From positions 1 through 38,347 of IMG/VR virus record IMGVR_UViG_3300043544_000428: DNA of 38,347 bases; one strand, written 5' to 3'. This document shows positions 4,189-32,849 of the stretch, one piece after another; within the stretch, counting starts at the first letter, position 1; each line of letters begins with the position of its first letter. Below the pieces are notes generated by a model. It was given only the letters and a program-made list of their open reading frames with translations, was not told the DNA's origin and searched no databases. The position numbers were made by a program, and so were the translations under genes. The stretch comes from a virus.

Positions 4189-4196
4189 CACCCAGG

Positions 4197-7210: not shown

Positions 7211-7921
7211 CATATCCTCCTTAAGTGTATTTACTTCTTCTACATTATACATTGAAAAAACAGAACTTTTCACTATTTGCGCCCATGTTGCTATATTAAC
7301 CGGCTGGCCAGTAAAAGATACTTCGTACAAACGCATTTTGGGCGGTATGTTAACAACTTTTCCATCTATGTACTTTTGAGTACTTTTACCTATAGGTATA
7401 GCGCCGATAGAAAGTCCAAGTTTTTGCGATACTCTTTCATCTCCAGAAAGAGCATTGTAAACTTTTTGCGCTAAAGGATGATTCTTATCTAACAAAGACC
7501 AAACATAAAGAAAATTTTTACCTATTTGTATGGCTATTGGTATTCCTATTGGTATGTCGTACATGTAAGATGGATCTGTTTTTCCGGCTAACTTGTACCC
7601 GTGTTCGTAAAATATCCTTCCATTTTTAAGAAAATCTTCTATAGAATCTCCAAAGGTTTCTTCAACATCTAATATTGCATCGTCAACTAAATCTATGTCT
7701 GGAGATGATGCGAGTCCAACTACTAACCAATCACCCGGTTTTAGTTTTATGTCTTCCCTTTTATAGAACTTACCCTCTTTCTCTGCTATGGGCTTTATTT
7801 CGGGAATCCTGTCAACGACAGTTTCTGTATCTGAGTAACCAACCCTTTCTAAAGAATAGGACTTTATGACCTTAAAGTCAGAAAATATAGGAATTTCTAA
7901 AATTTCTACTTGCTGGTTCAT
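6248..7921 (-). CDS. Prohead maturation protease fused to scaffold domain, 557 aa
   Basis: The N-terminal domain matches the caudovirus prohead serine protease (S78/U35-like), which cleaves scaffold and capsid delta domains during head maturation. Evidence: G-L-A-S-S-P-D-I-D at 69-77, catalytic His in Y-E-H-G (H107), P-I-G-I-P-I-A, catalytic Ser in L-G-L-S-I-G-A (S171), and the closing R-L-Y-E-V-S-F-T-G-Q-P-V-N at 197-209. From about 230 it becomes scaffold-like: acidic/Lys low-complexity at 240-290, Gly-Met-Pro-rich at about 305-345, coiled coil at about 345-460, and a charged helical tail. An internal Shine-Dalgarno before M237/M238 suggests a nested scaffold product. The start ATG 7921 lacks a Shine-Dalgarno but lies 8 nt after a TAAAAT box. 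The capsid gene follows. Confidence 0.85.
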   Translation of the reverse strand: MNQQVEILEIPIFSDFKVIKSYSLERVGYSDTETVVDRIPEIKPIAEKEGKFYKREDIKLKPGDWLVVGLASSPDIDLVDDAILDVEETFGDSIEDFLKNGRIFYEHGYKLAGKTDPSYMYDIPIGIPIAIQIGKNFLYVWSLLDKNHPLAQKVYNALSGDERVSQKLGLSIGAIPIGKSTQKYIDGKVVNIPPKMRLYEVSFTGQPVNIATWAQIVKSSVFSMYNVEEVNTLKEDMMPKKEVIKAKEAEEKEKEEEKEGTEEKGNKDERAKDEGDALTSLLGDGEEDKGEGEGLAGGNSGASLADALMGQGMPGGEMPGMPQGGMPGEEPAVLADLAPETQGEDAFPDLVLDKLDLLEQKLSKLEEVLSKLNMIEEEEHDMDIDQGKLEEEQKETENSLRLGETLKSINDLVEILTETTQKTLKYVEELHKNIDNIEKKVEKSLSEMLTVTKSFNTSKEEEKIVSKAKVGVTKDVHPHMGIATSEKLEEKVKSILASKDKVKKLKSFYEEYITFRGSPVEIQRKKDEIYDKARTTLGLEDYEVDVIFREFKKNFSS

Positions 7922-8155: not shown

Positions 8156-8184
8156 ATTATACTAAACTTGCTTCAACATTTCAA
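8156..8184 (-). promoter_or_regulatory. Strong promoter of capsid operon, leaderless
   Basis: On the minus strand TTGAAA (plus 8179-8184), exactly 17 nt, then TATAAT (plus 8156-8161), then 7 nt, then ATG at 8148. It lies across the 3' end of the 1393-aa gene, uncoupling head genes from the giant-protein genes. There is no ribosome site between start point and ATG. Confidence 0.7.
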
Positions 8185-11100
8185 GAAGTCTTAATGGCAT
8201 TTCAACAAAAACCTGATAACTTAAAGGATATAAATCTTTAAACTTTTTGTCTATTATGTAGTTTTCAAGAGCCGTAGATGGAATTTCTGTTCCGTCAGGT
8301 ACAAATATTCCATACTCGTCCAAATGAATACCTTCTTCATAAACCTTATGTATTAGTGCTTCAAGTTCCCTCATTAAATCCTTATTGTCTCGAGAAAATT
8401 TCTGTAAATCCATAAGTAAGGAATTGTATATAGGATACGATTCTCTTCTGGTGTCTGAGTAATCTACTACCTCGCCCTTGATAAATCTTTTTATTAAACT
8501 TTCTACTTTCTTATACATCTCTTCTATTCTTGTTTTTAGTTTAAGATTCGGGCTATTATCAAATGCAGAAGCAATTCGTTTGTACAAATCCAAAAATTTT
8601 TCTGCATATTCAACAGAAACTTCTCTAACAGAATCCTTTATTTTTGAAATTTCTTCTTCGCTTTTTTTATTTTTATAAGCTTTTTCAAGAAATTTATTCA
8701 TTAAGTTATTTTCATTAAGTAACAGGGCGTGAATTGAGTGCCCAAATTCATGTGCAATTAGGGCTTGCAAATAATTGGCACCATTAGTGTTTTCAGGAAT
8801 ACGCCCATCCTTAGGAAAATTTCTTTTTAGCATGGATATATTAGGATCACCTTCAAAATTCTTTTTTATCTCTTTATAATCTCCAGTTGGACTTAATTCG
8901 TAACTATCAGATATTAAAATAACAATCTTACCGGAGGGCCTTTCCGAAAGCACACCATCAGACGAATTATAATATCCAGAAAATGTTTTTGTATCTTTAC
9001 CTCTTAATGTAAAGACTATCTGGGGCGAAAAGCTTTTAAACATTTCATAAAAATTTTCATCCTTTTCTTGATAGAAATCTACCAACTTAGAAAATACTTC
9101 TCTCACAACTGAAAATGGTTTGCGCCTCAAAAATGGGTTTGAAAACATATTAAGACTTCCGTGCCCATTGTTATAATCATTATCTTTATCAAATAAAAGT
9201 GGAATGCCAGTTTTTTCATCACTTGTATAAAACCCGCTTACTGGAAGCAAAGTTTTTCTAAAAACTTCTTTAAAAAGCTTTTTTACATCTTCATCGTGCT
9301 CATATTCCTCTAAAACCCTGACGGCATTTTTTACGTCATAAAACGTAAAGCCTTCCCTATCTATGCTTCTGCCATACTTTTTCTTTATAAGATTTTTTGC
9401 TCTAGTAACGAATTCATTGGCAAAAGCCTTAGAAAGCTCATAAACATAAACAGTTCCTGCATTATATAAATCTTTAACAAAATTTACTGCCATGTGAGGA
9501 TCTAAAACAAAACTTATCCCATTTTGAACTAGAAGAAATTTAACAAATCCATTTTTATCGTAAAATGGTTTTACAGAGAAATCTTCATCTTCAAGCAATG
9601 AATTATCGGATTCTAAAAGTAAACCTTCAATATCATAGATATTACCGTAATCTCTAGAGCGAATGCCAGAAAAATCGTGGAAGAAAAGTGGTATTAAAGA
9701 GGCAAGGAAAGCACTTGTTTCTTTTTCATCCTTCCACACGCCTTCTGTGGGCAATGTTTGTCCATAGTATTCTATGTGGGCGGAAGGTAGTAAAAAACTA
9801 GAAACGTGGAACGGACTTTGGGGATTTAAAAATAGTTCAGGTATTGCCTTTAACTTATATTCCTCGGCTCCAGTTGAGTATCGCAATCTTTCTAAGAACT
9901 TACCAATCAGACCTTTCAAAACCTGTGAATGCGAATAAATAACTCTAGAAGAGTAATTCATATGATCAAAGGACGAGCTAAGGGTTTTGGAAGTGTAGGC
10001 TTTGGACCCGCTAACAAGCGAAAAATAGTAATAAAGAAGTGCGTCATACCTTTTGATAAAGGGTGTAAGGAAAATCTTCAATGAATTTTTGCTTGGATCA
10101 TTTAAGTGATATTTTATGTTTTCGCCCTTTATTAGAAACCTAGAAATTAATACTCTAAGCTGATCTAATAAGTCTTGTATGTAAAAGGGATTTTCCAATT
10201 GCCCTTCGTTTTTAAATACCATAGCCTTTATCAAGCCCAGATTATCTACCATTGCTGTTAGTTCTGGCTCCAAAGTCGAAACTGCACTAACCTCCTTTTT
10301 TAAAGACTCAATAATAGAAAAAAGATTCTTCTGAAAATCTTCGTTCACTTCTTCAAATTGTTCAATTAGTCTTCTTTTTGCCTCAGAAAACCGGTCAACT
10401 AATTTTGATGTTCCTCCTTCATATTCTAAGTATTTTCCATAGTGCGAGGAAGAGGCTGAAGAAAGCAAATAAGCTTTAAAGGCTTCTCGTCTTTTCTTTA
10501 TGATTTCTCTATCTAAATTCACCCAAATGTTTGTCATTTCACGATATATCATTTGATCAAGAAAGTAATTCCCAAGTTTTTTAACCACAGATGTTATTAT
10601 GTCTTCTAGTCTACTTTCAAGATAAAATTTCCAGTTTTCCATCGGTATTTCCTCATCGTTAACACCTAACTTCCCTTGACGATAAATAAAAGAAGATAAA
10701 AAGGCCGATTTGAAAGCTCCAATAGCCTGTAAAACCTCTGCAGATGTTTTTGAATTTCGAAGAAGTTCTGTTAATCTATGGGCCGTTGTCTCATAAGCAT
10801 CTTGATCATTGAGAAAAATCTTATGCCCAGCATATAACCCAAGTTTTACAAAATTCGAGTATTTTTCATATAACTTATCACGCTTTTTTTCTTTCTCTAC
10901 TTCCATGAAAAATTGTTTAACTGGTTCTTCATAAGAAAAAGAACTGCTAGGAATAAGTTCTCTTAATAAGCCAGGATATAACATTAAAGTATGTAAAACT
11001 GAAGATATATCTAGAGAAATTTCTTCACCTTCTACTGCTAAATAAAAACTCCCATCGTGGACAAAATCTTCTAGAAAATAAACAAGGTCTTCTATAGAAT

Positions 11101-12343
11101 TTGGACCTTTATTATCTTCCTCATCTTTACTTTCTTTTGAGACTCTTTTAAATATATCTACTGCTCTTAAAATAATTCGACTTTGAGGAGATTCAGCAAT
11201 AACGTTATCTTTTTCAGTATCACCAATATCTCTTTTATCTTTTTCAGCACTAAAGTATTTTAATTGGGAAAAGTATTCGTAAGCGAAATTTGCTCTACTT
11301 AGTAAATCTCCTTCTGATTGATTTCTACTTAGTGAAAGCAAAAATCCTTTGACTAAGAACTCTACAAAATCCTTTTTGTCTGCAACAGCATCTTCTTTTA
11401 ACAGATACTTGTAAAGTTCCTCAATAAATTCTGGATCAATGGCCGCCAATATGTCATTTTTCTTTAGCATGCGCTCAAACGTGCCTACAACTCTCTCTAT
11501 ATCTAGGCCCTCTTCTTCCTCTTCATAGTATTGCCGATCCTCTAAGCCGGAAGAAATTTCTTCAACTATTTCTGATATAAAGCTTAGCGGATCAGGGTAT
11601 TTTCCAGTTTTGTACGCATTTCTTAATGCGAAAAAAACTGGCGATAGTACGTTAAAAACTTGATCAGGAATTTCTAGCTTTTTAAAAAGTTTCAGATTTT
11701 TTTTGCTCAGTATTAATGTATTTTCTAGATCATAAAGTATTTCTTCTTCTATTTCTCCAAATGGAATATTTTTCACACCATAAAACTCAAAAAACTTTTT
11801 TATATCTTTAGCAAATGGTTCTAAAATTTCTAAGAATTCCAAATCTTCTGAGGTAATGTTGACTTCGTAAAAAAAATCATCGTCTATAGGATTGATGTGA
11901 TCCAATATATTATAGATGTTTACGAAACTGTAGTTGGAAATTTTACCCAAAATAAAGTATGCGGAATAAAATATTAAGTCCTTATAATCCCTCAAAGTTG
12001 GAGTGTAGTCAAATCTTTTCAGTACCCTCTTTGCACCCTCAATAAAGTCCTCATGAGTCAAAGTATTACCCTCCCCTTCGTCTTGGTTAGATTCGGCTAA
12101 TATGGGCTGTTCCGTCTTTCCTCCATAAATTTTCATTGCATAATCAAAAACGCTTTCCAAAACCCATTTACTGTCGGGGCTGTTAACTTTTATTCCGTTT
12201 CTTACACCAACAAACTGTCCGGGGTAATAGACAGAACTAGGGCTATCCAAACGATACAGAACAAATCCCTCAGGAACATATTTAACAATGTCATAATCTC
12301 TTTCTGTTGGGATTATGTTGTTTTTTTCATATATTACACCCAT
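8162..12343 (-). CDS. Giant protein 1: zincin-type metallopeptidase polyprotein, 1393 aa
   Basis: This is a multidomain giant. Residues 23-46 carry the module shared with the other giants (V-P-E-G-F-V-L-Y, then V-Y-Y-P-G-Q-F-V-G), followed by W-V-L at 60-62 and a helix L-T-H-E-D-F-I-E-G-A-K-R. The middle is long, charged and helical without a recognised family. Near the C-terminus, A-L-I-A-H-E-F-G-H-S-I-H holds a zinc site HExxH (H1198, E1199, H1202), typical of gluzincin or related peptidases; a downstream third ligand was not assigned. No signal peptide or membrane segment is seen. GAGGG lies 7 nt before ATG. Zincin domains occur in ejected phage polyvalent proteins; that role is inferred. 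It could also be a structural protease. Confidence 0.8.
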   Translation of the reverse strand: MGVIYEKNNIIPTERDYDIVKYVPEGFVLYRLDSPSSVYYPGQFVGVRNGIKVNSPDSKWVLESVFDYAMKIYGGKTEQPILAESNQDEGEGNTLTHEDFIEGAKRVLKRFDYTPTLRDYKDLIFYSAYFILGKISNYSFVNIYNILDHINPIDDDFFYEVNITSEDLEFLEILEPFAKDIKKFFEFYGVKNIPFGEIEEEILYDLENTLILSKKNLKLFKKLEIPDQVFNVLSPVFFALRNAYKTGKYPDPLSFISEIVEEISSGLEDRQYYEEEEEGLDIERVVGTFERMLKKNDILAAIDPEFIEELYKYLLKEDAVADKKDFVEFLVKGFLLSLSRNQSEGDLLSRANFAYEYFSQLKYFSAEKDKRDIGDTEKDNVIAESPQSRIILRAVDIFKRVSKESKDEEDNKGPNSIEDLVYFLEDFVHDGSFYLAVEGEEISLDISSVLHTLMLYPGLLRELIPSSSFSYEEPVKQFFMEVEKEKKRDKLYEKYSNFVKLGLYAGHKIFLNDQDAYETTAHRLTELLRNSKTSAEVLQAIGAFKSAFLSSFIYRQGKLGVNDEEIPMENWKFYLESRLEDIITSVVKKLGNYFLDQMIYREMTNIWVNLDREIIKKRREAFKAYLLSSASSSHYGKYLEYEGGTSKLVDRFSEAKRRLIEQFEEVNEDFQKNLFSIIESLKKEVSAVSTLEPELTAMVDNLGLIKAMVFKNEGQLENPFYIQDLLDQLRVLISRFLIKGENIKYHLNDPSKNSLKIFLTPFIKRYDALLYYYFSLVSGSKAYTSKTLSSSFDHMNYSSRVIYSHSQVLKGLIGKFLERLRYSTGAEEYKLKAIPELFLNPQSPFHVSSFLLPSAHIEYYGQTLPTEGVWKDEKETSAFLASLIPLFFHDFSGIRSRDYGNIYDIEGLLLESDNSLLEDEDFSVKPFYDKNGFVKFLLVQNGISFVLDPHMAVNFVKDLYNAGTVYVYELSKAFANEFVTRAKNLIKKKYGRSIDREGFTFYDVKNAVRVLEEYEHDEDVKKLFKEVFRKTLLPVSGFYTSDEKTGIPLLFDKDNDYNNGHGSLNMFSNPFLRRKPFSVVREVFSKLVDFYQEKDENFYEMFKSFSPQIVFTLRGKDTKTFSGYYNSSDGVLSERPSGKIVILISDSYELSPTGDYKEIKKNFEGDPNISMLKRNFPKDGRIPENTNGANYLQALIAHEFGHSIHALLLNENNLMNKFLEKAYKNKKSEEEISKIKDSVREVSVEYAEKFLDLYKRIASAFDNSPNLKLKTRIEEMYKKVESLIKRFIKGEVVDYSDTRRESYPIYNSLLMDLQKFSRDNKDLMRELEALIHKVYEEGIHLDEYGIFVPDGTEIPSTALENYIIDKKFKDLYPLSYQVFVEMPLRLLEMLKQV

Positions 12344-12352
12344 AACTAGCCC

Positions 12353-12829
12353 TCATTTTCCTCCTTTCTTTTTGTAAACTTGTGAGTATATCGCCCTTTT
12401 AATTAAGGAAAAATCCTCATTAATATCAAAAGAGAATTCTCTTACATACCTTGGAACTCTCTCTTTTTTATAGAGAATGCAATTTATCTTATCCAACTTC
12501 ATTCTGGCAATAAAAAAGTAATCGCCGTCTAAATCTACTGAAATGTAATCTTTTTCTCCCGACAAAAGGGTGGAAAATAGATCATTGTGATTGCTATTAA
12601 TATTCTTTGCTAAGCTTATGGCTTTTTCTGCTATTTCTTCTGCATTAGAAAATTCTAGGTCCATACACTCACCGTAATAACATATACTAGCACTAATTTC
12701 ACCTAAAATTTTTTGCAAGTAAAACGCCAATGAATCTGCTTCAAAAGATAAATATGACTCATCTGGAGATTCCAAGAATCTAGATATTTTCTCTATGATG
12801 TCTTCTTTTGTTTTTTCCCTGTTGTTCAT
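12353..12829 (-). CDS. Acidic protein between giants, 158 aa
   Basis: The family is not recognised. The product (MNNREKTKEDIIEKISRFLE...) is acidic, with an N-terminal helical half including F-L-E-S-P-D-E-S, a central helix S-N-A-E-E-I-A-E-K-A-I-S-L-A-K, and a C-terminal beta part (D-Y-I-S-V-D-L-D-G-D-Y-F-F-I-A-R-M) ending in K-K-K-G-G-K. The shape recalls small dedicated chaperones that sit before a large secreted or packaged partner; nothing in the sequence proves this. Its stop TGA at 12353 overlaps the ribosome site region of the 1393-aa gene, so the two are probably coupled. AAGG sits only 2 nt before ATG 12829, a poor site. Confidence 0.7.
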   Translation of the reverse strand: MNNREKTKEDIIEKISRFLESPDESYLSFEADSLAFYLQKILGEISASICYYGECMDLEFSNAEEIAEKAISLAKNINSNHNDLFSTLLSGEKDYISVDLDGDYFFIARMKLDKINCILYKKERVPRYVREFSFDINEDFSLIKRAIYSQVYKKKGGK

Positions 12830-12858
12830 GGCCTTAATATTCTTGCGAAATCTTTTCC

Positions 12859-12864
12859 ATTATA
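12859..12864 (-). promoter_or_regulatory. Possible extended -10 promoter at end of the 1798-aa gene
   Basis: On the minus strand TGCTATAAT overlaps the stop codon of the 1798-aa gene, an extended -10. A poor -35 (TTACTT) lies 17 nt upstream. It would start a message about 25-30 nt ahead of the 158-aa gene ATG. As at 8156-8161, a -10 box sits at the 3' end of a giant gene. Confidence 0.4.
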
Positions 12865-15800
12865 GCATTAGAAATGCACTCAAGTAATCCTTGCAGTACT
12901 CTTTTACATTAAGTGTTATACGTTTTGACTCTCCCCCCTCATCTTTTGGAGGAAGAACAATTGTCCAAATGTTATCCCCATTAAAGCTTAGCGCAATAGA
13001 TATTGGCTTTCCTCCATAAAGCGCTTGTAAAGTTGTAGAAGAGCTTGCAAGCACTTCATCTACAGCGCTTTTAAGGGCCTCTTTGTCAATAGAAACTTTC
13101 TCTTCTTCATTTCTTTCTTCTTTTGCGCTAGATTCTTTTTCCAGATTTTCCTCTTTGTTTGCACTCTCTTTTCTTTCTTCTACGCCAACATCTTCTACTT
13201 GCCCTTCTTTACTAGTTTGATCGGTAACTTCTCTTATTGGTTTGTAATTTACAAAAGACACAAACTTACCAGAATCGCCTACTCCCATTGGTTTGGATAA
13301 CACTTTAAATGCACGAGCCAAGGTAGCTAGTCCCCCAGACAACAAAGATTTTTTATCCTGAGATATAGACTTGATAAATCTACCGCTTGGATCATAAAGT
13401 TCAAAAGACACTTCATCTTTTCCTTTTTCTTTTAACTTCATAACAAAACCACGTTCCGTTTTTATTTTTAAGTCATTAATTTTCCCGCTAAACAAATCTT
13501 CCAGGGCAAATTTAAAGTCTTCTTCTTCTATTGAAGAGGATTGTTCTAGTTGTTTTTGCTCTTCTTCTATTTTTCTTTTCGCTAGTTCTTTGAAGATTTC
13601 TTCAAAATTTTCTGCTTCTTGGAGAACGCCCAATGGAACGGTTACAGAATATCTTTTACCGCTTTTTTCAAAGTAGTAATGAACTTTATCGCCGCTCACC
13701 TCATAGCTTCCTTTTACTCCAAGTCCAGAAAAAGATAAATCTCTCGTTTCGCTATTTAAAAACTCTTTTAATCTTCTCTTTCTCTCTTCCTCTTTTTCTC
13801 TTTTCTTTTTCTCTCTATAGTGCTCAGTAACTTCTCTTTGTATGGACTCGGTATCAAAGATGTCTTTTATTTTTAGTTTCCTTAAATTTTCAAAGTCTTT
13901 GCCCAAAAATATTCTTTCGTAAACAACATTTCCTGAGCTATCTCTCAAAACCAACCTAGCATTATTTTTATCAACATACAAACTGTAATCAAAAATATCC
14001 TCTCCAGTTTCCTCATCCAACGCAAAGCTAAACCTTGTACCTATTTGTGTGTTTTCTTCCCCCGCTAAAACATTCCCCAAAGTCATTGTTTCAATATCTC
14101 TTTGAGTTCTAGCTAATAATGGTAGGTCTTCAAATCCACCTTCTCCTTCAAAAACTGGCTTATCTAGAACCTTACCAGTCTTTAAAAGTTCACTCATTAC
14201 ACTATGTATATTTGCCCCCTTTAGGGCCTCCAAATCTTTTGAAGAAAGTGTTATAGCCGCAATTTTTTCAATCTTTTTCCCAGTTTTTGGCCTGTCTTTA
14301 TTACCAAAAACTGCGTTAGCAAAATCCATAGACGGAGCAAGAGTAATTCTATAATTTTTATTATTGACCCTTTCAACAATAACTGCCCCGTCAAAATTGT
14401 CTTCCCTTTCTCCATACACTAGTAAAGATTGAATATTTTTGTGATTAAGTACCTCCATTACATCAGCAAAAGTTGTTTTTTCAAAATCAGATGATGTAGA
14501 GTAATAAGCTCCATCAGGGGTAACATGTTTTCTAAAATTGGACGCTACTCCTGTTTTTATTTTTTGCTCTACCTCATGAAGTTTAGATACTGTCTTAGCT
14601 TTCTTAGCTTTGGAGGGCCTACTTTTAACAGCTTTTTCAACTACATCTTTAATGCTTTCCTCTGTTATAGTTTCTAGTTCTTCATTTACTTTTTCATCTT
14701 TTGAAACCTTCTTTTTTTCCTTTTGGAGTTTAGTTATTTTAGTTGATTTTCCTCTGTCCTCTGGAGGTTTTTGCGGCTCTTCTTGTTCAATATTTTTTAT
14801 TTCTTCTTCCTCGCCTTCCATTTTAGATTCTTCCAAATTTTCCACAGACTCTCCTTCGGGGGTAGATTCTGGCTCTAATTTTTGTTCTTCTGGTTCTTGG
14901 GCAGTTTCTTGTAATGTATCAGTTTCTTCTTCTAATTCTAGTTTTTGCGGCTCCCCTTCAGCTTCACTTATATTCTCTAGAACTGGAACATTAGAAATCT
15001 TTTCCTTTATATTTTCTTTTTCTAAATAGCCCAATACGCCTCTCAATAATGTCTTCAGCGCTTTTGATGCTTCATTACCGGATAAACTTGGGGCACGGTT
15101 AATGATGTTAAATTCGTCATTAGTAAGTTGTCTAGAAACAACTATATCGTCTCCCTTAGTAACTTCTACTTTCCACCCCTTTACTAATTTGACGCTTCTT
15201 CCATCAATTACTGCCGAATCTTCTTCACCTTCCTCTCCCACAGTCCTTGTAATAATCAATTCATATTGATCGCCAGCATAATTAAATTTAATAGAGCTAT
15301 AATCAGCAATTTCTTCATCTTCTGTTTCATATATTTCTTTTGTAGATAAAGAAACTACATTTTTAAAAAACTCCTCAGGATCCCCAGAAACGCTTACATT
15401 TTTTGTTGTTTTAAATCTAAAGTTTTTTCCATCAACTTCTACAGACTCTAAAATCTCTCTAATTTTAGAGAAATTTCTAGGCTCTGCAGAAAATTTTACA
15501 GGAAACTCTTCCGTACCAGCTCTTCTCACATTATTAAGGTTTAGAGGTATATAAGCTTTTAAAAGCGGATCCCTTACAAAAGAGGCTATAGTTCTGCTAT
15601 CTTTAAACTCCTCTAAGCTTTCTGCCAAAAGTTCACCTGGTTGATTTCCAGTACCAAATACTCTATCTAAAACTTCTTTCACATAATCTCTTAAACCAAC
15701 ACTCATGCTTAAAATGTCCCCATTATTCTGTATATAAGAAGAAGATACTGACGAAAGAACTATAGTATTTTTTAAAGCATCAATAATAAATTTACTATTA

Positions 15801-18256
15801 TCCTTTATGCTGTCCTTATTCTCTCTAACTTGCCGAGAAGCGTAATACATGCTTTCTATCAAATTATTAAGAGTTTCTGCATTTTTTCTAACAAGAATGT
15901 TTACTTCATCCTCTTCCCCACTACTGAGGGTCGCAGTTAAATCTAAAACTGCTTTATCCACGCCGCTTCTGACATCATTACCAATTTGATCAAGAAGTTC
16001 TCCACTTTTGTCAAGCAACGAAATCAGCCGTAAAAAAAGTTTTAAGACTCTATTCTCATTTTTAAGCATTAAAGATCTTGTATCCAGAGAGTCTAAAAGT
16101 GCCGAAAAAGTAATAGACTCATCTAATGGGTTCTTATCCAGTAGTTTGGTTATAGCGTCATCTAAGTTCTTTGCTTTTATTCCATAGGTTTCTTCTAAGT
16201 CATCCAAAATTTCTGAAGTTACTTCCTCTAGTCCTTTTGTAACCTCCACATAAGTTTTTCCTTCGTCTTCCTCATATATTGGTTGGCCTTCGACTTTTGG
16301 AGTTTCTTCTAAAACACCCCCTGTATCAACTTCTTCATAGGATTCTTCTTCATCTTCAAAAGAGTGGATTTTACCTACATCTTCCTTGAACTCATCTTCA
16401 AGCTTTTCCTTTAATCTAGCTTCCCAAGATCTAATTGAATTTTTAACAAGATCAAGGTCTAACGAATTATCTTTAGACAAAAATGCTTCGCTAACTTGCT
16501 TAGTCATTTTGACCGCATAAGCGTCTCTCAGCGCATCTATAATTGAATCTTTTTTGCTAATAGAAAGGTCAAGAATTCCTCCCGGTCTAAATGTTTCAGA
16601 CATTATAAAACTTGCATCATTTTTATTAAAACCTAGGCTTCTAAGTAAAAACTCAAATAAAGAAACTTCTTCTTGATACTCAACTTTACCTTCATAGTTA
16701 AAAGTAGAATAAGAAACACTAGAATCTGCAGAAAGTCTTGCCAACATTTCAAACAAAAGCTTACCGTCTATACTCTTATCTTGAACAGAAAAAGCTTTAA
16801 TCAGGGTTAAAAATTTTGAAGCCAAAGGAGAAAAGCGGTAAGTTATTTCTTCTGTGTCGTCAGAAATAGTTAGCTCAAGGCTTCCATCTGAAGAATGCTT
16901 TAAATTAAAATTTCTCAACAAATATAGCAAAAAGTTTCCCGCCAAATATGGAATATCTTGTGCCGCAGACCATGCGATTGAAGTTTTTTTATTCGTAACC
17001 TTCACAACAGAAGCAACATCTACAAAAAAGTTATAACGTGATGGTGATTTTAAAAATTTTCCTTTGATAAACTTCAGTTCAGAATCTTCTTCTATGGATT
17101 TAAAGATTTCTTCTCTACACTTATCCGCCCCATTGGAATACCTTTCTATACACAACTTAAATTTCTTTGAAGCGTCTGCTAGATTTTCAAATCTGCCTTT
17201 CAAAAATTCTGTTATTGGAGAAAATAAATATCTGCCAAAACCAATTGTATGAGATTTTGTCCATTCGTTCATCATCCAATGAGCATCCTCAAAAACAGTC
17301 AAGGACTTTTCAAGGAAAGAACTGACATCTTCTACTTGGCGGAAAAGCTGTCTAAGCACATCTTCATTTAGGTCTTCCTCAAAATAATATTCGTCCAATT
17401 TTTTATATAACTCTTCTGCCGCCCTTACCCAACTTAAAATTTCTTCTAATTGGTCTTGTTCTATAAGCTTATCTAGCGATACAAAATAATCTTTTTTAAG
17501 CGCCTCATCAAAACGCTTAAGAATTTTTCCTATGGTGGCTCTGGAGTCCTCCAAAAGTTTGAGAGTAGCTAATCTTTCTCTTTCCTCTTCATCTATTTGG
17601 AAAATGTCTTCTGGAAATTCTTCTTCAAAGCCCTCCTTTGACTCTTCTAAAAGATCTTCGTCATCTTCAAAAGAAATATCTATATTAATCCAATCTTCAT
17701 CTTCCTCCTCTTTTTTTTCTTCTAAAATATCATCAACACCAAAAGATTCTAAAAAATCGTTAAGACTTTCTGCAAACTCATCTAAAGGGCTTAAGTTTTC
17801 TTCTTCTTCTTGTTTCTCTTGCTCTTCTTCCTCTTCTTTTTCTTCTAACTTGTCTGGTTCTTCTTCTGATTCTTCCATTTGTTGCTCTTCCTCATCTTCA
17901 AAACTAATTTCAATATCACTTTCTTGTTCTTCTTTTCTTTCCTCTTGTTCTAAAAGTTGGTTAAGCTTTCTTTTGGCCTCTTCAATTCGTTTTTCTTCCT
18001 CTTGTTCGGTAAGTTCTTCTCCAGGTTTTCTAATAGCTAGTTCTCCATAAGTTGCATACCAAGAATCATAATCTTGCAAAACCCACTCAACGTCATCAAT
18101 TAAAATGCCATTACCTGGTAGTTTTTCTCCAGAAAAATAGGGATTTAAGGGTCCATGTTTTTTTTCTCCAGAGGGGTTATAAATTACATACCCATCTGGT
18201 ACATACGTATATATCGGACCTTCTTCTGTATATCTTACTTCACTATTATTTTTCAT
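12860..18256 (-). CDS. Giant protein 2: acidic multidomain virion-type protein, 1798 aa
   Basis: No enzymatic motif is recognised. Residues 19-43 carry the giants' N-terminal module in a degenerate form (V-P-D-G-Y-V-I-Y, then P-Y-F-S-G-E-K-L-P-G-N-G), followed by W-V-L at 58-60 and L-T-E-Q-E-E-E-K-R-I-E-E-A-K-R. Residues about 80-225 are extremely Glu-rich and contain two copies of a short motif (D/N-I-E/D-I-S-F-E-D, then acidic, then E-E-S); a third S-F-E-D-E-E-E lies near 630. A second low-complexity Glu/Pro/Lys linker lies about 1085-1210. The C-terminal third has several short beta modules, two with D-x-S-G-x-x. The ATG is 3 nt after the previous stop, so it is translationally coupled. 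Role inferred: packaged or ejected protein. Confidence 0.75.
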   Translation of the reverse strand: MKNNSEVRYTEEGPIYTYVPDGYVIYNPSGEKKHGPLNPYFSGEKLPGNGILIDDVEWVLQDYDSWYATYGELAIRKPGEELTEQEEEKRIEEAKRKLNQLLEQEERKEEQESDIEISFEDEEEQQMEESEEEPDKLEEKEEEEEQEKQEEEENLSPLDEFAESLNDFLESFGVDDILEEKKEEEDEDWINIDISFEDDEDLLEESKEGFEEEFPEDIFQIDEEERERLATLKLLEDSRATIGKILKRFDEALKKDYFVSLDKLIEQDQLEEILSWVRAAEELYKKLDEYYFEEDLNEDVLRQLFRQVEDVSSFLEKSLTVFEDAHWMMNEWTKSHTIGFGRYLFSPITEFLKGRFENLADASKKFKLCIERYSNGADKCREEIFKSIEEDSELKFIKGKFLKSPSRYNFFVDVASVVKVTNKKTSIAWSAAQDIPYLAGNFLLYLLRNFNLKHSSDGSLELTISDDTEEITYRFSPLASKFLTLIKAFSVQDKSIDGKLLFEMLARLSADSSVSYSTFNYEGKVEYQEEVSLFEFLLRSLGFNKNDASFIMSETFRPGGILDLSISKKDSIIDALRDAYAVKMTKQVSEAFLSKDNSLDLDLVKNSIRSWEARLKEKLEDEFKEDVGKIHSFEDEEESYEEVDTGGVLEETPKVEGQPIYEEDEGKTYVEVTKGLEEVTSEILDDLEETYGIKAKNLDDAITKLLDKNPLDESITFSALLDSLDTRSLMLKNENRVLKLFLRLISLLDKSGELLDQIGNDVRSGVDKAVLDLTATLSSGEEDEVNILVRKNAETLNNLIESMYYASRQVRENKDSIKDNSKFIIDALKNTIVLSSVSSSYIQNNGDILSMSVGLRDYVKEVLDRVFGTGNQPGELLAESLEEFKDSRTIASFVRDPLLKAYIPLNLNNVRRAGTEEFPVKFSAEPRNFSKIREILESVEVDGKNFRFKTTKNVSVSGDPEEFFKNVVSLSTKEIYETEDEEIADYSSIKFNYAGDQYELIITRTVGEEGEEDSAVIDGRSVKLVKGWKVEVTKGDDIVVSRQLTNDEFNIINRAPSLSGNEASKALKTLLRGVLGYLEKENIKEKISNVPVLENISEAEGEPQKLELEEETDTLQETAQEPEEQKLEPESTPEGESVENLEESKMEGEEEEIKNIEQEEPQKPPEDRGKSTKITKLQKEKKKVSKDEKVNEELETITEESIKDVVEKAVKSRPSKAKKAKTVSKLHEVEQKIKTGVASNFRKHVTPDGAYYSTSSDFEKTTFADVMEVLNHKNIQSLLVYGEREDNFDGAVIVERVNNKNYRITLAPSMDFANAVFGNKDRPKTGKKIEKIAAITLSSKDLEALKGANIHSVMSELLKTGKVLDKPVFEGEGGFEDLPLLARTQRDIETMTLGNVLAGEENTQIGTRFSFALDEETGEDIFDYSLYVDKNNARLVLRDSSGNVVYERIFLGKDFENLRKLKIKDIFDTESIQREVTEHYREKKKREKEEERKRRLKEFLNSETRDLSFSGLGVKGSYEVSGDKVHYYFEKSGKRYSVTVPLGVLQEAENFEEIFKELAKRKIEEEQKQLEQSSSIEEEDFKFALEDLFSGKINDLKIKTERGFVMKLKEKGKDEVSFELYDPSGRFIKSISQDKKSLLSGGLATLARAFKVLSKPMGVGDSGKFVSFVNYKPIREVTDQTSKEGQVEDVGVEERKESANKEENLEKESSAKEERNEEEKVSIDKEALKSAVDEVLASSSTTLQALYGGKPISIALSFNGDNIWTIVLPPKDEGGESKRITLNVKEYCKDYLSAFLML

Positions 18257-18259
18257 AGC

Positions 18260-18562
18260 TTATGTGCATTTTTGCTTATAGACCCTATATAACCCATCTC
18301 CAAATAAATTATCAATTACAGGATTATCAGATATATGATCTATCATGGCGCAAATTGTTTCGTCATCCAAATCGTCCTCAGAGAAAAGATAAGACAACAT
18401 TTGAATATCTCTAATATATTTTTCAAACTCTTCTCCATCTTCATCTTCAAATACACGTGGATAAGAATGTATGATTTTATCTTTTTCCCAGGGTTGTAGG
18501 TTGTTCAAAAACATCAAAACAAACTCTTTGACAATGCTTTCTCTTTCAGAATCTAAATACAT
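18260..18562 (-). CDS. Small acidic protein between giants, 100 aa
   Basis: The family is not recognised. The product (MYLDSERESIVKEFVLMFLN...) is strongly acidic and helical, with F-V-L-M-F-L-N-N-L near the N-terminus and S-E-D-D-L-D-D-E-T-I-C-A-M-I-D near 75. GGGGGT about 8 nt before ATG 18562 serves as its ribosome site, and its stop is 3 nt before the ATG of the 1798-aa gene. The arrangement of a small acidic protein followed by a giant is repeated by the 158-aa/1393-aa pair, which makes a chaperone-client relation attractive but unproven. Cys residues near the C-terminus show no metal-binding pattern. Confidence 0.7.
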   Translation of the reverse strand: MYLDSERESIVKEFVLMFLNNLQPWEKDKIIHSYPRVFEDEDGEEFEKYIRDIQMLSYLFSEDDLDDETICAMIDHISDNPVIDNLFGDGLYRVYKQKCT

Positions 18563-18576
18563 ATATCTATACCCCC

Positions 18577-21500
18577 TTAAATAAATATACCGTGAACAAG
18601 CTTCTCTATTTCTTTATCAGTTAAGTTAGAAGATTTTGCACGTTTTTGTATAATGTCTCTAAACATTTCAACTATTTTTTCTCTTTGCACCGCCAACTCA
18701 TCAGAGATGGTGCTATAGTTCTCAAAACTTCCAAGCCATCCTTCTAATGCATCTAAAATTCTTCCTTGTTGTCCTCTATTAACCCTTGAAAGGAGAGTCC
18801 TATATCTACGTAAGTATCCTTCTGTTCTTTCTAGTCCAAGCCAGGTATTGATTTGTTCTGCAAGTAGGTGCAATTCGGATCTTTCTCTTTCGTCCAATTC
18901 TGTTGCGGGTCTTTTTCCTTGAATCTCTTTGGCCGATGGCAACTTAGGTTTACTAGCCACATCCTGTAGGGTTGCCAAAACTGTTCTTTGCAGTACTGGA
19001 AATACTGTTGCAGCATCTAGTACTGTTCTTTGCTTGACACTTAAGGACTCTAGATACTTTTCTTTTTCTCTTATTTCTTCTTCGAGTTTTTTAATGTCTT
19101 CTGGTTTCGCTTTGCTTCGTTTTAGTTTTGCCAAAAGGTTCTTTTTAGCTTCTATATCTTCTCTTTCTTTGGAAATATCTGTAAAAAGTTGGGCACTACG
19201 CACACCTCTGGCTGAGGCCTGACGCAATTCTTCATAAGAATAAGGCGAGAAAACTAAGGTTTTTGAAGAAGGCAAGTTTAGACCACGACCAGCGGCTCTC
19301 GTAGTTAGAACAGTAATTGTTTTTAAACCGTGTCTATTTGTGTATTGTTTAATGATCCTTTCTTGTTTTTCCACAGGAGTTCCACCTATAATTGCACCAA
19401 CTGCAGTATCATTTGGATCATGTAAATTCTTGGCTAATCTATAAATAGACGATGCGTGCTTTCTAGAGGGAGAAAGAATAATAGCTTTGTGCTCAAATCC
19501 AAGAACGGGCTTATCAGATAAAGAAAACGCATCATTAAGCTTATCTTTATTATTTTCGTAAACATTCACATCTTGATAAAGGTTAACAAATAGGCTAAGT
19601 AAAGTATAAGGATCTAGCTTAATTGTTTCTCCTTCAAGATCATACTCGGTGTTGGGATCAGAAAGGGACTCTAATAGTAGCTTAATTTCTCCTTTTTGGG
19701 ATAAATTAAAAGGAGATTGAAATTTAGCTGGATCATACTCAACTTCCTTTCTTTCTCCTTCTTCTTTCACGTAATAATTTATGCGGAAATATACCTCATC
19801 TCCGTTGCGTTTTAGTTCTATTTCAAAGGGCGGTTCATTAGAATCTAAATCAAGCTCAATAAGTTTCTGTGCGTGCCTCATAGCGATATTGAAGACTGCA
19901 GACATTGCCATATTTCTAGCACGAATAAAGTTCTTGCGCAAGTTAAACTCTTCATCTCTTTGTCCAACGCCAAGCATTGACACGCCTTGATCTTCTTGTG
20001 ATTCTTGGCGCTGTATATCGTCAATATCTTCTACATCAGCCGATAAATCATCCCCTCTCCCTACAACCCCCGCATAGTTAGGGAAATAAATCATGTCTTT
20101 GTTTGTAAGCCCGTAAATTCTGCCATCACTAGTTTTGGTAGAAAATGGGCTAAACTCAATGCCAGCAACATTATTAAGAGTGCGAGATAAATCTTCTATA
20201 GTTATTCCGGCAGAACCAAGTGATACTCTTAAGCCTTCTAACAATTTATCAAGGGCCGTTTCAAAATTTTGCCTAAATTCTTGCTCATTCGCTACTCCGT
20301 ACAAATGAGTGGCCATACTAGAAGCTATATCAAGATATAACTCACGAATAGTTTTTGTACTGCTTTCAGTTTGGCCTTCCGCAACTTTTCTATAAAGTTC
20401 CCTGATTTTATCTTTTTTGTTTTCCGATTCTGTACTACCAAAAATCTCTTTGACTATGTCAATATTTGGAACTTTTACGTTCATTGTCTTATCAAATCCA
20501 TATTCAAAAGCACGATCCCTAGGGAAAATTCCTAACAATGCTTCTCTTTGCATTTGTAGAAAAGCTGGTCTGTAGCTTTCTGATAGATAGGTAAGATCAA
20601 TCTCGCTATTGCTTTTATAACCCGATTTAGAGCCCTTACCCTTTCCTTTAGGAGAATATAAAATTCCGGGCGCTGTTATAGCAACATCTCTTTCATCAGA
20701 TAATGCCTTAGCCCTAGTAACTTGATCAAGAGCTGTATACAAAACCAAAGGCTTTAACATAACATCTTCTGAGTGGGGCAGTACTCTTATCTCTTCATTG
20801 TTAAAGTTATCACTCACTAGAGGAATATCAAACTCCAATAAAGCATTTTTTTCTCCAATTACCGCACTAACTTTTTTAGAAGAAACACCATCAGCTTCTG
20901 ATTTTATATAACCCTTAATTTTTTGTCCATATATAGTATCATTTGTTAATTTTGAAGAAAAGGCTCTTAAAACCCTAAGAGATCCAGATTTCCACAGATA
21001 AATATTTCTTCCACCAACCTTATATAGATAAACAGACTTTGGATCCAAAATGTTTCCGTAATAGTGTGTTAAGTTTAATAATGCGGCGGTGTTTAAAGGA
21101 GAAGTAGACACTTCTTCAGCGTTTAACAACCATACAAGACCTTTGTTTGTGTCTGATGTAATACCGGATTTAATAGCCGCCATAGTTCTATGCCGTAAGG
21201 TTGCCGGGTTCATTACCATACCAGCTTCGTCAATTACCATACCTCCAAAAACGCTATCATTTAAAGTAATGTTCACATCAACAATTTTTCTAACATTCGG
21301 AGAAAAATATCCTTTCCCTTGATTCACATAAGGAATAGCTAATGACTTTATTCTGATGGGCTTACTCATTGTAATCAGCGCTCTTGAGTCGTTGCTAAAA
21401 AGCCTATCAGCATTAGTTTCTTTTGACGCTCTTTGGGTCTTGTAAGTTCCAACAATAACCATATCTGGTAATTTTTGGGGAACGCCAGTTTCGGTCAATT

Positions 21501-24465
21501 CTTTGTACGCTGACTCTAACTCATTTTTTTTCTTTACTAACTCTAGGTACTCTTTGCCCTTTGGAGAATTTTTATCTAGTTTTGCCCCTTGCCCTTGAAG
21601 TTCATTTATCCTACGTTCAATCTGCTTTAAAGAGTAAAGTAAGGTAAGAAGTTTGTAAGAAGCTTCCCTTTTGTTAACGTCAACATCTCTAACTACCAAA
21701 ACATCAGCATTGGGAACAATAAATCCCCCAGAAAGTCCAAAAACATTTTGCGCATCCCTTACCCAGTTTCCAATAACGTTTTCTGGAGCAAAGACTAAGA
21801 CTGGTTTATCTGGATGTATAATTCCAAGGTCCTTTCCTAAAAGAATCGTTCCTATCTGAGTAACAGTCTTTCCAAGTCCGCCCTCCCAAAATAGAATGGA
21901 GCCAACCTTTTCAGAAAACCCTCCTTGGTGTCTATTAAGCGCCTTATTTAAGGAGAATACCGTGCCGTATAACTGATAGAGGTAAATACTATTTTTTTGC
22001 TTTTCCAAATTATTTAAAAATCTTCCGTGCAAAATTTTGTTTGCATCTTCCTCTATAAGTTTGTCCAAAGTTTCTTTTGATGGTCTTGATGGGTTATTCA
22101 GCCTTTCAAATTCATCTTTAAGGGGATTTTGAATTAAAAGGGATATAACTCTAGAAAAAGCTCTTTTGTTTTCTTCAAGGCTTTGGCCAGTTAGTCCCAG
22201 GAAGGTAATTCTTGAACTTCTTACTATTCCGTTCTGTCCAAAAATTAAATCTACATCATTCTTTAGCTGTGATGCCGTTCTTTCGGATATTATTCCTCTT
22301 TCACGGAATAGATAGTCAATATAATCTTTTATATTATCCCTTATTTCTGAATCAGAATATATATTTCGTCCATCAAAGAATATCCCGTAAACTTTTGCTT
22401 CTACTTGATCTGCAAATTCTTCTTGTTTTTGTACAAATTCTCTTGTTATAGTTTTTGTATCTTCATCGCCAAAGCTGTGTAAAACACGAACATATTCTCC
22501 ACTAGCCACTAGCTTTTTAAATTCATTTATACCCTTTAAGAAGTCCTCAAGTTTACTTGTGCTTACGGCCCCCCGAGAAAGGACTGAACGAATCAAGGAT
22601 ACATCTCTAATAATCTTGTCTAGTGATTGAGCCCTTTCGGACGGATTCACAGGCCCCCTATTCACTTGCTCAAGGTCTTTTTCAAGACCCTTAAGTTTTT
22701 CTGAAAGATTTCTAAAAAACTCCCTAATCTCAGATTCGTTGGTTGTTAATATGCCTTCTTTAATAAGTCTATCTATTAAAGACCCGCTTTTGATTCTTAG
22801 TTCTTCCCCCGAAGAAAAACCGAGCATTATGGAAATTGGTATACCTTTAACTCCTGCTTCTTTGAGGTTGTCAAACAATAAATTTAGGGTATCACCAGAA
22901 AACTCTGCTAACCTTCTTCCGTGATATTGCTCACTAATTCCCTCTGAAAGATTTGGGTTAGTTGCAAATACTGACGATGTTTCACGCAAATAATCTCTCA
23001 CATTTCTAGATGTGGCGGCATCTATATTTCTTAAAAGAACATTAAATAGGAAGTTCAGATATGGTTTTGTGGTATCCCAGTTATCTACACTCAATCTTCC
23101 TTTTTCGCTTACAATTGGTACTTTATCTGTAAAAAGGAAAAGATAATCTTTTAAAAGTACATCTACTAAACTTGGATCTTTTGTAAATGGATCTTCAAAT
23201 ACTTTGGTATTCCCCGCCGCTACAAGATTACTTTCAAGCTCTTCATCTTGAAGAACGTCTGTTAGTTTAACTAATACTATATCTCCAGATTTATTATCTC
23301 TAGCAATAACTCCAAACTTTTGCGCCTTTTCGGCTACAGATATTTTATCAAATAACTCAGTTACATTTTCCTTAGGAACGCTTTTCTCTTTTAATGCGTA
23401 TCTTAACAATTCTCTCAAAATTGTTTCGTAAGGCACATATTTTGTAGATACCTTTGTTCTTTTCTCTTTTGAAATATTTAACTCTGTGGCTAATCTACCA
23501 ACTATATCCTCATAACTTATAGCGTCCTGTTTCTGCTCTTCCTCACTAGCGCCTTCAATCTCCTCAAGAATTGAAGAAACAATATTTGGAAGATTCTCTC
23601 CAACAATACTTTCTAGTTTTGTTAGATTATCTAAAAATACTCTCTTCTCATCCTTGTTTAGACGATCAACAATCTCCTTTAAAAGTTCTGCACTAAATCC
23701 ACTTTTTGAAAATTCTTTCTCTAATTGAGGGTCTTGTTTAAATAGATCATTTAACTTTTTAACCAAAAAAGTTTTTAAATTATTAAAAGCGGTTTCTGCT
23801 ACTTTCTTTTCATCTTCAGAAAGTTCTCTGCCTTCTTGTTGTATAGGAATGACTAAATACTTCTGGCCTAGAGATTCTATAGGTATTTGTCCAACAAATT
23901 GTCCGGGCAAATATACCTTTCCAGTTTCAACGTTTTCCAGCATGAAGCCTGGCGGAACTCTAATCAAGTATTGCTTGCCGCCAATGGTCTTCATGTACTC
24001 TTTTTCGCCAGAAGAAAACGAAAAAGATTTTAGTACTTCCCCATAGCTTTCTTGACTCTTCTTGCCTTTTAAGTAATAGGACAATATAGGTAGAACTGGA
24101 TAAGTTCTCTCAACTAGGTTTGTATGATCATCTTGATCTTCATCTAGGCCGAGCGCCGATTTTTCAACTGTCTTATCTGAAATTTGCTTTACGACATAAC
24201 CATTCCAAGACAAAAGATCTATCAAGTTTATTAAGTGTTCTTTTGTATCTGGAATGCTTATTTTTGCTTTATAAATAAGCTTTTTGCTTATATTGGCAGG
24301 AGAAAGATTGAAAATAAAGCTTTTTAACAAGGACCTTAGATCTTGTCTAACATTCTCGTTTTCTGAAAGAACGTTGTATTCAACAGAATCCTTGTCAACC
24401 GTTGCAACTACTACAGCTTCCGCACCTGTATCAACTCTACGAAGTTGTATTACTTTTCTAATCAT
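18577..24465 (-). CDS. Giant protein 3: SNF2-type helicase multidomain protein (DarB-like role possible), 1962 aa
   Basis: This is a superfamily 2 helicase embedded in a giant protein. Walker A F-W-E-G-G-L-G-K-T ends at residue 867; motif Ia V-L-V-F-A-P-E-N-V-I-G-N-W follows within about 50 residues. Walker B is M-V-I-D-E-A-G (D1079, E1080). The second lobe lies at about 1640-1760 with T-R-A-A-G-R-G-L-N-L and motif VI R-Q-A-S-A-R-G-V-R. Between lobes are about 550 residues of insertion. The giants' module is at 170-192 (V-P-P-G-F-M-L-E, then V-Y-L-P-G-Q-F-V-G), preceded here by an extra 165-residue domain. P1 DarB is a known large virion-borne helicase protein that protects DNA from restriction; the same role here is inference. 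No Shine-Dalgarno precedes ATG 24465; a TGCTAAAAT box lies 11 nt upstream. Confidence 0.85.
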   Translation of the reverse strand: MIRKVIQLRRVDTGAEAVVVATVDKDSVEYNVLSENENVRQDLRSLLKSFIFNLSPANISKKLIYKAKISIPDTKEHLINLIDLLSWNGYVVKQISDKTVEKSALGLDEDQDDHTNLVERTYPVLPILSYYLKGKKSQESYGEVLKSFSFSSGEKEYMKTIGGKQYLIRVPPGFMLENVETGKVYLPGQFVGQIPIESLGQKYLVIPIQQEGRELSEDEKKVAETAFNNLKTFLVKKLNDLFKQDPQLEKEFSKSGFSAELLKEIVDRLNKDEKRVFLDNLTKLESIVGENLPNIVSSILEEIEGASEEEQKQDAISYEDIVGRLATELNISKEKRTKVSTKYVPYETILRELLRYALKEKSVPKENVTELFDKISVAEKAQKFGVIARDNKSGDIVLVKLTDVLQDEELESNLVAAGNTKVFEDPFTKDPSLVDVLLKDYLFLFTDKVPIVSEKGRLSVDNWDTTKPYLNFLFNVLLRNIDAATSRNVRDYLRETSSVFATNPNLSEGISEQYHGRRLAEFSGDTLNLLFDNLKEAGVKGIPISIMLGFSSGEELRIKSGSLIDRLIKEGILTTNESEIREFFRNLSEKLKGLEKDLEQVNRGPVNPSERAQSLDKIIRDVSLIRSVLSRGAVSTSKLEDFLKGINEFKKLVASGEYVRVLHSFGDEDTKTITREFVQKQEEFADQVEAKVYGIFFDGRNIYSDSEIRDNIKDYIDYLFRERGIISERTASQLKNDVDLIFGQNGIVRSSRITFLGLTGQSLEENKRAFSRVISLLIQNPLKDEFERLNNPSRPSKETLDKLIEEDANKILHGRFLNNLEKQKNSIYLYQLYGTVFSLNKALNRHQGGFSEKVGSILFWEGGLGKTVTQIGTILLGKDLGIIHPDKPVLVFAPENVIGNWVRDAQNVFGLSGGFIVPNADVLVVRDVDVNKREASYKLLTLLYSLKQIERRINELQGQGAKLDKNSPKGKEYLELVKKKNELESAYKELTETGVPQKLPDMVIVGTYKTQRASKETNADRLFSNDSRALITMSKPIRIKSLAIPYVNQGKGYFSPNVRKIVDVNITLNDSVFGGMVIDEAGMVMNPATLRHRTMAAIKSGITSDTNKGLVWLLNAEEVSTSPLNTAALLNLTHYYGNILDPKSVYLYKVGGRNIYLWKSGSLRVLRAFSSKLTNDTIYGQKIKGYIKSEADGVSSKKVSAVIGEKNALLEFDIPLVSDNFNNEEIRVLPHSEDVMLKPLVLYTALDQVTRAKALSDERDVAITAPGILYSPKGKGKGSKSGYKSNSEIDLTYLSESYRPAFLQMQREALLGIFPRDRAFEYGFDKTMNVKVPNIDIVKEIFGSTESENKKDKIRELYRKVAEGQTESSTKTIRELYLDIASSMATHLYGVANEQEFRQNFETALDKLLEGLRVSLGSAGITIEDLSRTLNNVAGIEFSPFSTKTSDGRIYGLTNKDMIYFPNYAGVVGRGDDLSADVEDIDDIQRQESQEDQGVSMLGVGQRDEEFNLRKNFIRARNMAMSAVFNIAMRHAQKLIELDLDSNEPPFEIELKRNGDEVYFRINYYVKEEGERKEVEYDPAKFQSPFNLSQKGEIKLLLESLSDPNTEYDLEGETIKLDPYTLLSLFVNLYQDVNVYENNKDKLNDAFSLSDKPVLGFEHKAIILSPSRKHASSIYRLAKNLHDPNDTAVGAIIGGTPVEKQERIIKQYTNRHGLKTITVLTTRAAGRGLNLPSSKTLVFSPYSYEELRQASARGVRSAQLFTDISKEREDIEAKKNLLAKLKRSKAKPEDIKKLEEEIREKEKYLESLSVKQRTVLDAATVFPVLQRTVLATLQDVASKPKLPSAKEIQGKRPATELDERERSELHLLAEQINTWLGLERTEGYLRRYRTLLSRVNRGQQGRILDALEGWLGSFENYSTISDELAVQREKIVEMFRDIIQKRAKSSNLTDKEIEKLVHGIFI

Positions 24466-31975: not shown

Positions 31976-31990
31976 TATAGGTAAGAATAT

Positions 31991-32020: not shown

Positions 32021-32030
32021 AGATGGAAAA

Positions 32031-32843: not shown

Positions 32844-32849
32844 TATAAC

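What the first reader, a model, noticed from the sequence alone, without database searches (positions are those of the whole stretch)
8162..24465. Three giant proteins share an N-terminal sorting-tag-like module
The 1393-, 1798- and 1962-aa proteins carry the same short pattern: V-P-x-G-F/Y-V/M-L/I, about 12-18 residues, then a P-G-Q-F-V-G block (exact in two, degenerate P-Y-F-S-G / L-P-G-N-G in the third). A W-V-L element follows in two of them, and about 30-50 residues later a helix L-S/T-x-x-E-x-x-x-x-x-A. Positions are 23-46, 19-43 and 170-192. The rest of the three proteins looks unrelated, and one has an extra domain before the tag. A common tag on otherwise different cargo, encoded next to scaffold and capsid, suggests a capsid-targeting or ejection signal. 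To my knowledge this has not been described.
Basis: partly seen in the sequence, partly recalled or inferred. Interest (0 to 1): 0.85.

Follow-up and report, generated by a model that had tools for sequence, protein, structure and literature searches.

The report
Shared N-terminal domain on phage giants
Three very large, otherwise unrelated proteins of a hot-spring phage share the same small folded domain, which recurs on a fourth protein beside the DNA portal in related Thermus phages; it probably addresses these proteins to the virus head so that they are injected with the DNA, but that function is still untested.

Summary
The core observation holds; one detail fails. The window is a fragment of a phiYS40-like Thermus myovirus (capsid protein 80% identical to phiYS40). 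Its 1393-, 1798- and 1962-aa proteins sit at the positions of phiYS40 gp76, gp77 and gp79 (helicase), and each carries a homologous 60-75-residue module: K-x-V-P-x-G-(F/Y)...G-Q/K...G-I/V...W-x-L. Profile searches put it at the matching place in every phiYS40-like genome that holds these genes. They also find a fourth carrier, YS40_002, encoded beside the portal gene. With the module removed, no pair of the four families shows detectable similarity. Between close relatives the module stays 93-97% identical while the rest of each protein is 79-90%. AlphaFold models it as a confident small beta domain plus helix (pLDDT about 95). No solved structure or Pfam family matches, and phage hits lie only in this group. 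The proposed extra helix is not conserved. In one relative the domain before the helicase's tag is a separate gene. The best explanation is a head-entry (capsid-targeting) domain for packaged, ejected proteins: a DarB-like SNF2 helicase, a zincin-like protease and two unknowns. This works like the T4 capsid-targeting sequence or the P1 DarB signal, but no homology was found. Packaging is inferred; no virion mass-spectrometry data could be read here.

The parts
8162..12343 (-). P0001, 1393 aa: N-terminal module plus long, fast-diverging helical body plus C-terminal HExxH (zincin-like) region; positional ortholog of phiYS40 gp76
12116..12343 (-). module copy 1, residues 1-76 of P0001
   Evidence: 47.5% identity to gp76 1-80, E 4e-18; HMM; AlphaFold pLDDT about 95 over residues 1-70
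8738..8752 (-). HExxH (HEFGH, residues 1198-1202 of P0001), conserved as HEIGH/HEVGH in three orthologs
   Evidence: no Pfam family match
12353..12829 (-). 158-aa ORF between giants 1 and 2; no family
12860..18256 (-). P0002, 1798 aa: N-terminal module plus strongly acidic body; positional ortholog of phiYS40 gp77
   Evidence: profile E 1.7e-4
18041..18256 (-). module copy 2, residues 1-72 of P0002
   Evidence: leave-one-out HMM E 1.7e-4 to 1.1e-6
18260..18562 (-). 100-aa ORF between giants 2 and 3; at the position of phiYS40 gp78 (121 aa)
18577..24465 (-). P0003, 1962 aa: accessory domain, module, SNF2-like helicase; positional ortholog of phiYS40 gp79
23818..24015 (-). module copy 3, residues 151-216 of P0003 (internal)
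   Evidence: BLAST E 0.016 with P0001; profile-profile hit E 1e-4 at this site
24121..24465 (-). accessory N-terminal domain of P0003 (about 1-115); a separate ORF in relative G004
21748..21936 (-). SNF2-related domain match, residues 844-906 of P0003
   Evidence: Pfam PF00176 E 5.3e-6
19198..19494 (-). Helicase_C match, residues 1658-1756 of P0003
   Evidence: Pfam PF00271 E 5.5e-8
6248..7921 (-). head maturation protease with acidic coiled C-terminal half (possible scaffold)
   Evidence: phrog_32465 E 3e-104; 44% identity to gp74
4818..6212 (-). major capsid protein
   Evidence: phrog_752 E 2e-75; 80% identity to gp73

Best explanation
The shared element is a small folded domain that works as a common head-entry (capsid-targeting) address. 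During prohead assembly each copy would dock on one shared receptor (most likely the protease/scaffold core, capsid inner face or portal vertex), pulling its fused giant into the prohead before DNA is packaged. The giants would then leave with the DNA at infection and act early in the host: the SNF2-like helicase as an anti-restriction or DNA-remodelling factor like P1 DarB, the HExxH protein as a protease, the others unknown. Shown: homology of the module, its recurrence on four unrelated cargo families, its unusual conservation, its predicted fold, and the genes' place beside protease, capsid and portal genes. Inferred: presence in the virion, the receptor, the docking role, ejection, and any cleavage of the tag.
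For: Module found in four protein families in phiYS40 (complete genome) and in the 157-kb relative G002, all in head clusters: three directly upstream of protease and capsid genes, one directly downstream of the portal gene. It is the only detectable similarity between the four families: best non-module hit P 0.095, against 2e-14 to 7e-3 for the module. It is the most conserved 75-residue window of gp76 and gp77 (97% against 79-84% for the rest) and is about 95% against 81% in YS40_002. Across to the window phage it is 47.5% identical where the rest of gp76 is barely alignable. Confident small beta domain. A more distant relative lacking the giants in its covered capsid region (G005) has no module and a different portal neighbour. 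Precedents: the first 30 residues of P1 DarB, also a giant helicase, suffice to package a reporter (PMC9024508); T4 internal proteins share a targeting sequence on unrelated bodies (PMC9026906); giant-phage head proteins carry long N-terminal propeptides with a proposed targeting role (PMC5694885).
Against: No virion proteomics could be read: the phiYS40 and TMA papers are not held, and the annotations of these proteins in phiYS40, TMA and YS40_Isch carry no virion note. The module of the helicase is internal (residue ~151), unlike the T4 and P1 signals. No similarity to P1 Dar N-termini. No conserved protease cleavage site after the module was recognised. A binding domain could serve another end, such as DNA, portal or host-factor binding.
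Confidence: 0.6

Rival explanations
1. The module is a shared interaction domain with a post-ejection or structural role: it ties the giants together, to the portal, to DNA, or to a host factor, and packaging is directed by something else.
For: It is a folded domain rather than a short peptide; it sits internally in P0003; one carrier is encoded beside the portal.
Against: N-terminal placement in three of four families, and near-N-terminal (residue ~43) in the G004 helicase whose accessory domain is a separate gene, fits an address better.
Confidence: 0.22
2. The four families are full-length paralogs whose bodies diverged beyond recognition; the module is just the slowest-evolving part and no independent tag was spread.
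For: Bodies evolve fast (79-84% where the module is 97%); the three giants lie in tandem.
Against: Recognisably different enzymatic cores (SNF2 helicase, HExxH) with none in common; no residual similarity in profile-profile alignment without the module; the module sits at different depths in the chain.
Confidence: 0.1
3. The giants are not head cargo but are made late or early as cytoplasmic or tail proteins; the module is, for example, a translation, stability or complex-assembly element.
For: No direct evidence for virion presence was obtainable.
Against: Conserved operon-like position between gp80 and protease/capsid in the window, phiYS40, YS40_Isch and TMA, and the same order in the G004 fragment; DarB-like helicase giants and MPTase proteins of this kind are typical packaged polyvalent proteins (PMC5512222).
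Confidence: 0.06
4. Chance similarity of short glycine/proline motifs.
For: Direct pairwise scores inside the window are marginal: 0.016-0.024 for P0001/P0003 and 0.91 for a P0001-only profile against P0002.
Against: Recurrence at orthologous sites in independent genomes, leave-out profiles, reversed controls.
Confidence: 0.02

Closest known systems
T4 capsid-targeting sequences (CTS) of IPI, IPII, IPIII
   Same: One N-terminal address shared by otherwise divergent proteins that are loaded into the prohead and ejected (PMC9026906).
   Different: The T4 CTS is a 10-19-residue propeptide cleaved by gp21; this is a ~60-75-residue folded domain with no recognised cleavage site, it can be internal, and most of its cargo exceeds 1000 aa. 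Packaging is unproven here.
Phage P1 DarB N-terminal packaging signal and Dar system
   Same: Giant SNF2-type helicase plus a metallopeptidase-type protein (DdrB) among the packaged set; N-terminal signal (PMC9024508).
   Different: The P1 authors found no consensus among Dar N-termini; here the same domain is on four proteins. No sequence similarity between the module or giants and P1 Dar proteins. P0003 has no methylase match.
Polyvalent proteins of phages and conjugative elements (Iyer et al. 2017)
   Same: Very large phage proteins near packaging genes with SWI2/SNF2 or MPTase-like parts (PMC5512222).
   Different: No convincing Pfam domain for P0001 or P0002 and no LPD-type Pfam hit; the shared module is not in Pfam.
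Long N-terminal propeptides of SPN3US/phiKZ-type head proteins
   Same: Long N-terminal regions, proposed to target proteins into the prohead (PMC5694885; PMC10052503).
   Different: Those are cleaved; cleavage here is unknown. No sequence comparison with them was made.

Membership tests
Capsid-targeting sequence (T4-type) | Shared N-terminal sequence on otherwise unrelated proteins | tested here: met
   (N-terminal in gp76, gp77 and gp2 types; internal in gp79 type)
Capsid-targeting sequence (T4-type) | Short (10-19 residue) propeptide | tested here: not met
   Conserved unit is about 60-75 residues and folds as a domain
Capsid-targeting sequence (T4-type) | Removed by the prohead protease | not testable with these tools
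   Needs N-terminal sequencing or mass spectrometry of virions
Capsid-targeting sequence (T4-type) | Sufficient to package a heterologous protein | not testable with these tools
   Bench experiment
P1 Dar / DarB family | Sequence homology to DarB, DdrB or DarA | tested here: not met
   No BLASTP hit better than E 0.14; module HMM negative
P1 Dar / DarB family | SNF2-type helicase core | tested here: met
   P0003 and gp79: Pfam PF00176 and PF00271
P1 Dar / DarB family | N6-adenine methylase domain coupled to the helicase | tested here: not met
   No methylase Pfam hit in P0003 or gp79
Polyvalent proteins | MPTase (zincin) domain | tested here: inconclusive
   HExxH conserved in four gp76-type proteins, but no Pfam match
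Polyvalent proteins | Encoded near phage packaging/head genes | tested here: met
phiYS40-like Thermus phages | Conserved capsid protein and syntenic head cluster | tested here: met
   MCP 80% identity, protease 44%, same order of giants

The most novel reading that the evidence does not exclude
A dedicated, folded cargo-loading domain acts as a common ticket into the phage head for a whole set of unrelated giant proteins, one of them encoded at the portal. This would be a modular head-entry system of a kind not described so far (T4 and P1 signals are short and, in P1, not shared), and it works even when placed internally.
Probability: 0.45. Interest if true: 0.8.

Novelty: new variant of a known kind. 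Interest (0 to 1): 0.62.

Why it matters
How large phages choose which proteins to pack in their heads is known in detail only for T4 and, partly, P1, where a shared signal was looked for and not found. A domain that occurs on four unrelated proteins of one phage gives a direct, testable candidate for a general loading signal, from a thermophile whose proteins should be stable and easy to study. It would let a profile search predict the ejected set of these phages from sequence alone, and could serve to load foreign proteins into heat-stable phage heads.

Tried and rejected
(1) Helix L-S/T-x-x-E-x5-A: strict pattern absent from all three proteins, loose form not conserved in orthologs. (2) A T4-like [LI]-x-E cleavage site at the W-x-L-E end of the module: the E is not conserved (Q, V or P-type residues in gp77, P0002 and gp79 types), rejected by eye. 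(3) Homology to P1 Dar N-termini: none. (4) Known fold: no Foldseek match in PDB (best E 2.4); in the viral library only two hits, both unnamed large proteins (E 5e-10 and 3e-7; from length and identity probably the TMA and YS40_Isch orthologs), the rest above E 1. (5) Relatives of P0001 in viral contigs by its own peptides: none. (6) Capsid relatives in bacterial/archaeal genome contigs: none. (7) Structure of P0003 1-240: low confidence (pLDDT 48); strand order at 158-207 resembles the module but proves nothing. (8) Papers on phiYS40/TMA virion proteomics: not held. (9) Tsukamurella phage hit to the module (E 2) and phrog_16224 (E 0.24): chance level. (10) A DNA pattern for the core motif found only one site in phiYS40, too strict to be useful. 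(11) Part printed the wrong strand for six loci and was not used.
Full report
WHAT THE WINDOW IS. The 38,347-base record is a fragment of a phiYS40-like Thermus myovirus (one search gives it as a virus record). Its capsid protein (4818-6212) is 80% identical to phiYS40 gp73 and its protease (6248-7921) 44% to gp74. Upstream of these on the minus strand lie three giants in the same order and at the same places as phiYS40 YS40_076 (1525 aa), YS40_077 (1744 aa) and YS40_079 (1524 aa, annotated helicase). The cluster also has the same order in Thermus phages TMA and YS40_Isch and in metagenomic contig 3300022541_000003 (G004); contig 3300005274_000001 (G002, 157 kb) also encodes all of these proteins.

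THE OBSERVATION. Within the window alone the case is weak: P0001 23-46 against P0003 170-192 is 54% identical at E 0.016-0.024, and a P0001-only profile finds P0002 at E 0.91. Relatives turn it into a firm result. P0001 1-79 matches gp76 1-80 at 47.5% (E 4e-18) and gp77 1-67 at 39% (E 7e-8); gp76 and gp77 match each other there (E 3e-8). Profiles trained without P0002 find it at E 1.7e-4 and 1.1e-6. A profile of P0001 and P0003 finds gp79 at the orthologous site, E 5e-5. Profile-profile comparison of the gp76-type N-terminus with full-length helicase alignments returns the module as best hit (E 1e-4), while reversed and unrelated templates give 0.16 or worse. The link of the helicase copies to the rest is the weakest: gp76/gp77-type sequence profiles alone do not find P0003. 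It rests on the profile-profile hits, on BLAST, and on the matching sequence V-E-K-V-P-A-G-Y-I-A-Y...G-G-K-F-L-G...W-M-L in gp79.

A FOURTH CARRIER. A search of the whole phiYS40 record with the six-row module alignment gives exactly four places: gp76, gp77, gp79 and, unexpectedly, YS40_002 (881 aa, E 4.6e-7). The same four were found in G002. YS40_002 is encoded immediately downstream of the portal gene YS40_003, and the module is at its N-terminus. Profiles without any YS40_002 sequence find it at E 5e-4 to 5e-3; profile-profile E is 2e-5.

SAME TAG, DIFFERENT CARGO. With the module cut away, no pair among the four families shows similarity (best P 0.095); with it, the module is the top hit in every pair tested. 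The bodies differ: SNF2-type helicase in P0003/gp79, a conserved HExxH near the C-terminus of P0001/gp76 and two further orthologs, an acidic body in P0002/gp77, and nothing recognised in YS40_002. Between phiYS40 and its close relatives, residues 1-75 are the most conserved 75-residue window of gp76 and gp77 (97% against 79-84% for the rest); in YS40_002 the module is 95% against 81%; in gp79 93-97% against 89-90%.

STRUCTURE AND EXTENT. AlphaFold with eight homologs models P0001 1-77 as strands plus a C-terminal helix, with block mean pLDDT 92-97 over residues 1-70. It is therefore predicted to be a small folded domain, not a linear peptide. No PDB match; in the viral structure library only two hits, probably the TMA and YS40_Isch orthologs. 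No Pfam match. The phage collection shows hits above chance only in phiYS40, TMA and YS40_Isch. A more distant relative, 3300045107_000421 (G005, 62 kb), has no module, no giants upstream of its protease, and a portal neighbour unlike YS40_002; it is a fragment, so this is only suggestive.

THE EXTRA DOMAIN BEFORE THE TAG. In G004 the accessory domain is a separate 123-aa ORF (34.9% identical to gp79's N-terminus, E 2e-15) overlapping the helicase ORF by 11 nt, so the helicase there has its module near its own N-terminus. At the corresponding place phiYS40, TMA, YS40_Isch and G002 all keep an in-frame ATG (codon 122) after a purine-rich stretch, which may allow a shorter product starting near the tag (inference). 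P0003 itself has no such ATG. A sequencing frameshift in G004 cannot be excluded.

MECHANISM. The best explanation is that the module is a head-entry domain: it docks on a common receptor in the assembling prohead and carries its giant inside; the giants leave with the DNA. Shown here: homology, recurrence, conservation, predicted fold, and position next to protease, capsid and portal genes. Inferred: virion presence, receptor, docking, ejection, cleavage. Precedents are P1 DarB, whose first 30 residues package a reporter (PMC9024508), T4 CTS sequences shared by divergent internal proteins (PMC9026906), and long propeptides of giant-phage head proteins (PMC5694885). From memory, the phiYS40 and TMA papers report virion mass spectrometry and, for TMA, maturation cleavages; they are not held here, so I do not rely on them.

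NOVELTY. A shared targeting tag on unrelated cargo is known in T4; in P1 it was sought and not found. What appears new is the tag being a folded domain without known relatives, on four unrelated large proteins including a portal neighbour, and sometimes internal. Hence a new variant of a known kind, pending proof of function.

Noticed in passing
L033:17361-17734 (-), relative G004; phiYS40 gp79 codon 122: The accessory domain fused before the tag in P0003/gp79 is a separate ORF in G004, overlapping the helicase ORF by 11 nt; phiYS40, TMA, YS40_Isch and G002 keep a conserved in-frame ATG at the joint, hinting at a second, shorter product.
   Followed up: partly
window 31337-33296 (-): Adjacent M23 peptidase, papain-family (C1) cysteine protease and a small HExxH protein (F-E-H-E-M-A-H); a papain-like protease in a phage structural region is unusual.
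   Followed up: no
window 2884-4206 (-): ResIII/SNF2-like helicase lies next to the capsid gene in the window, whereas in phiYS40 an annotated DEAD-domain helicase (YS40_027) lies about 40 kb from the capsid gene: possible local rearrangement.
   Followed up: no
L005 and L007 (IMG/VR 3300020567_000089, 3300045107_000421): A related lineage with a 75-78% identical capsid protein has tail-type genes directly upstream of the protease and no giants there.
   Followed up: partly
window 6248-7921 (-): The protease carries a long acidic coiled C-terminal half, so scaffold may be fused to the protease; no separate scaffold gene was recognised in this cluster.
   Followed up: no
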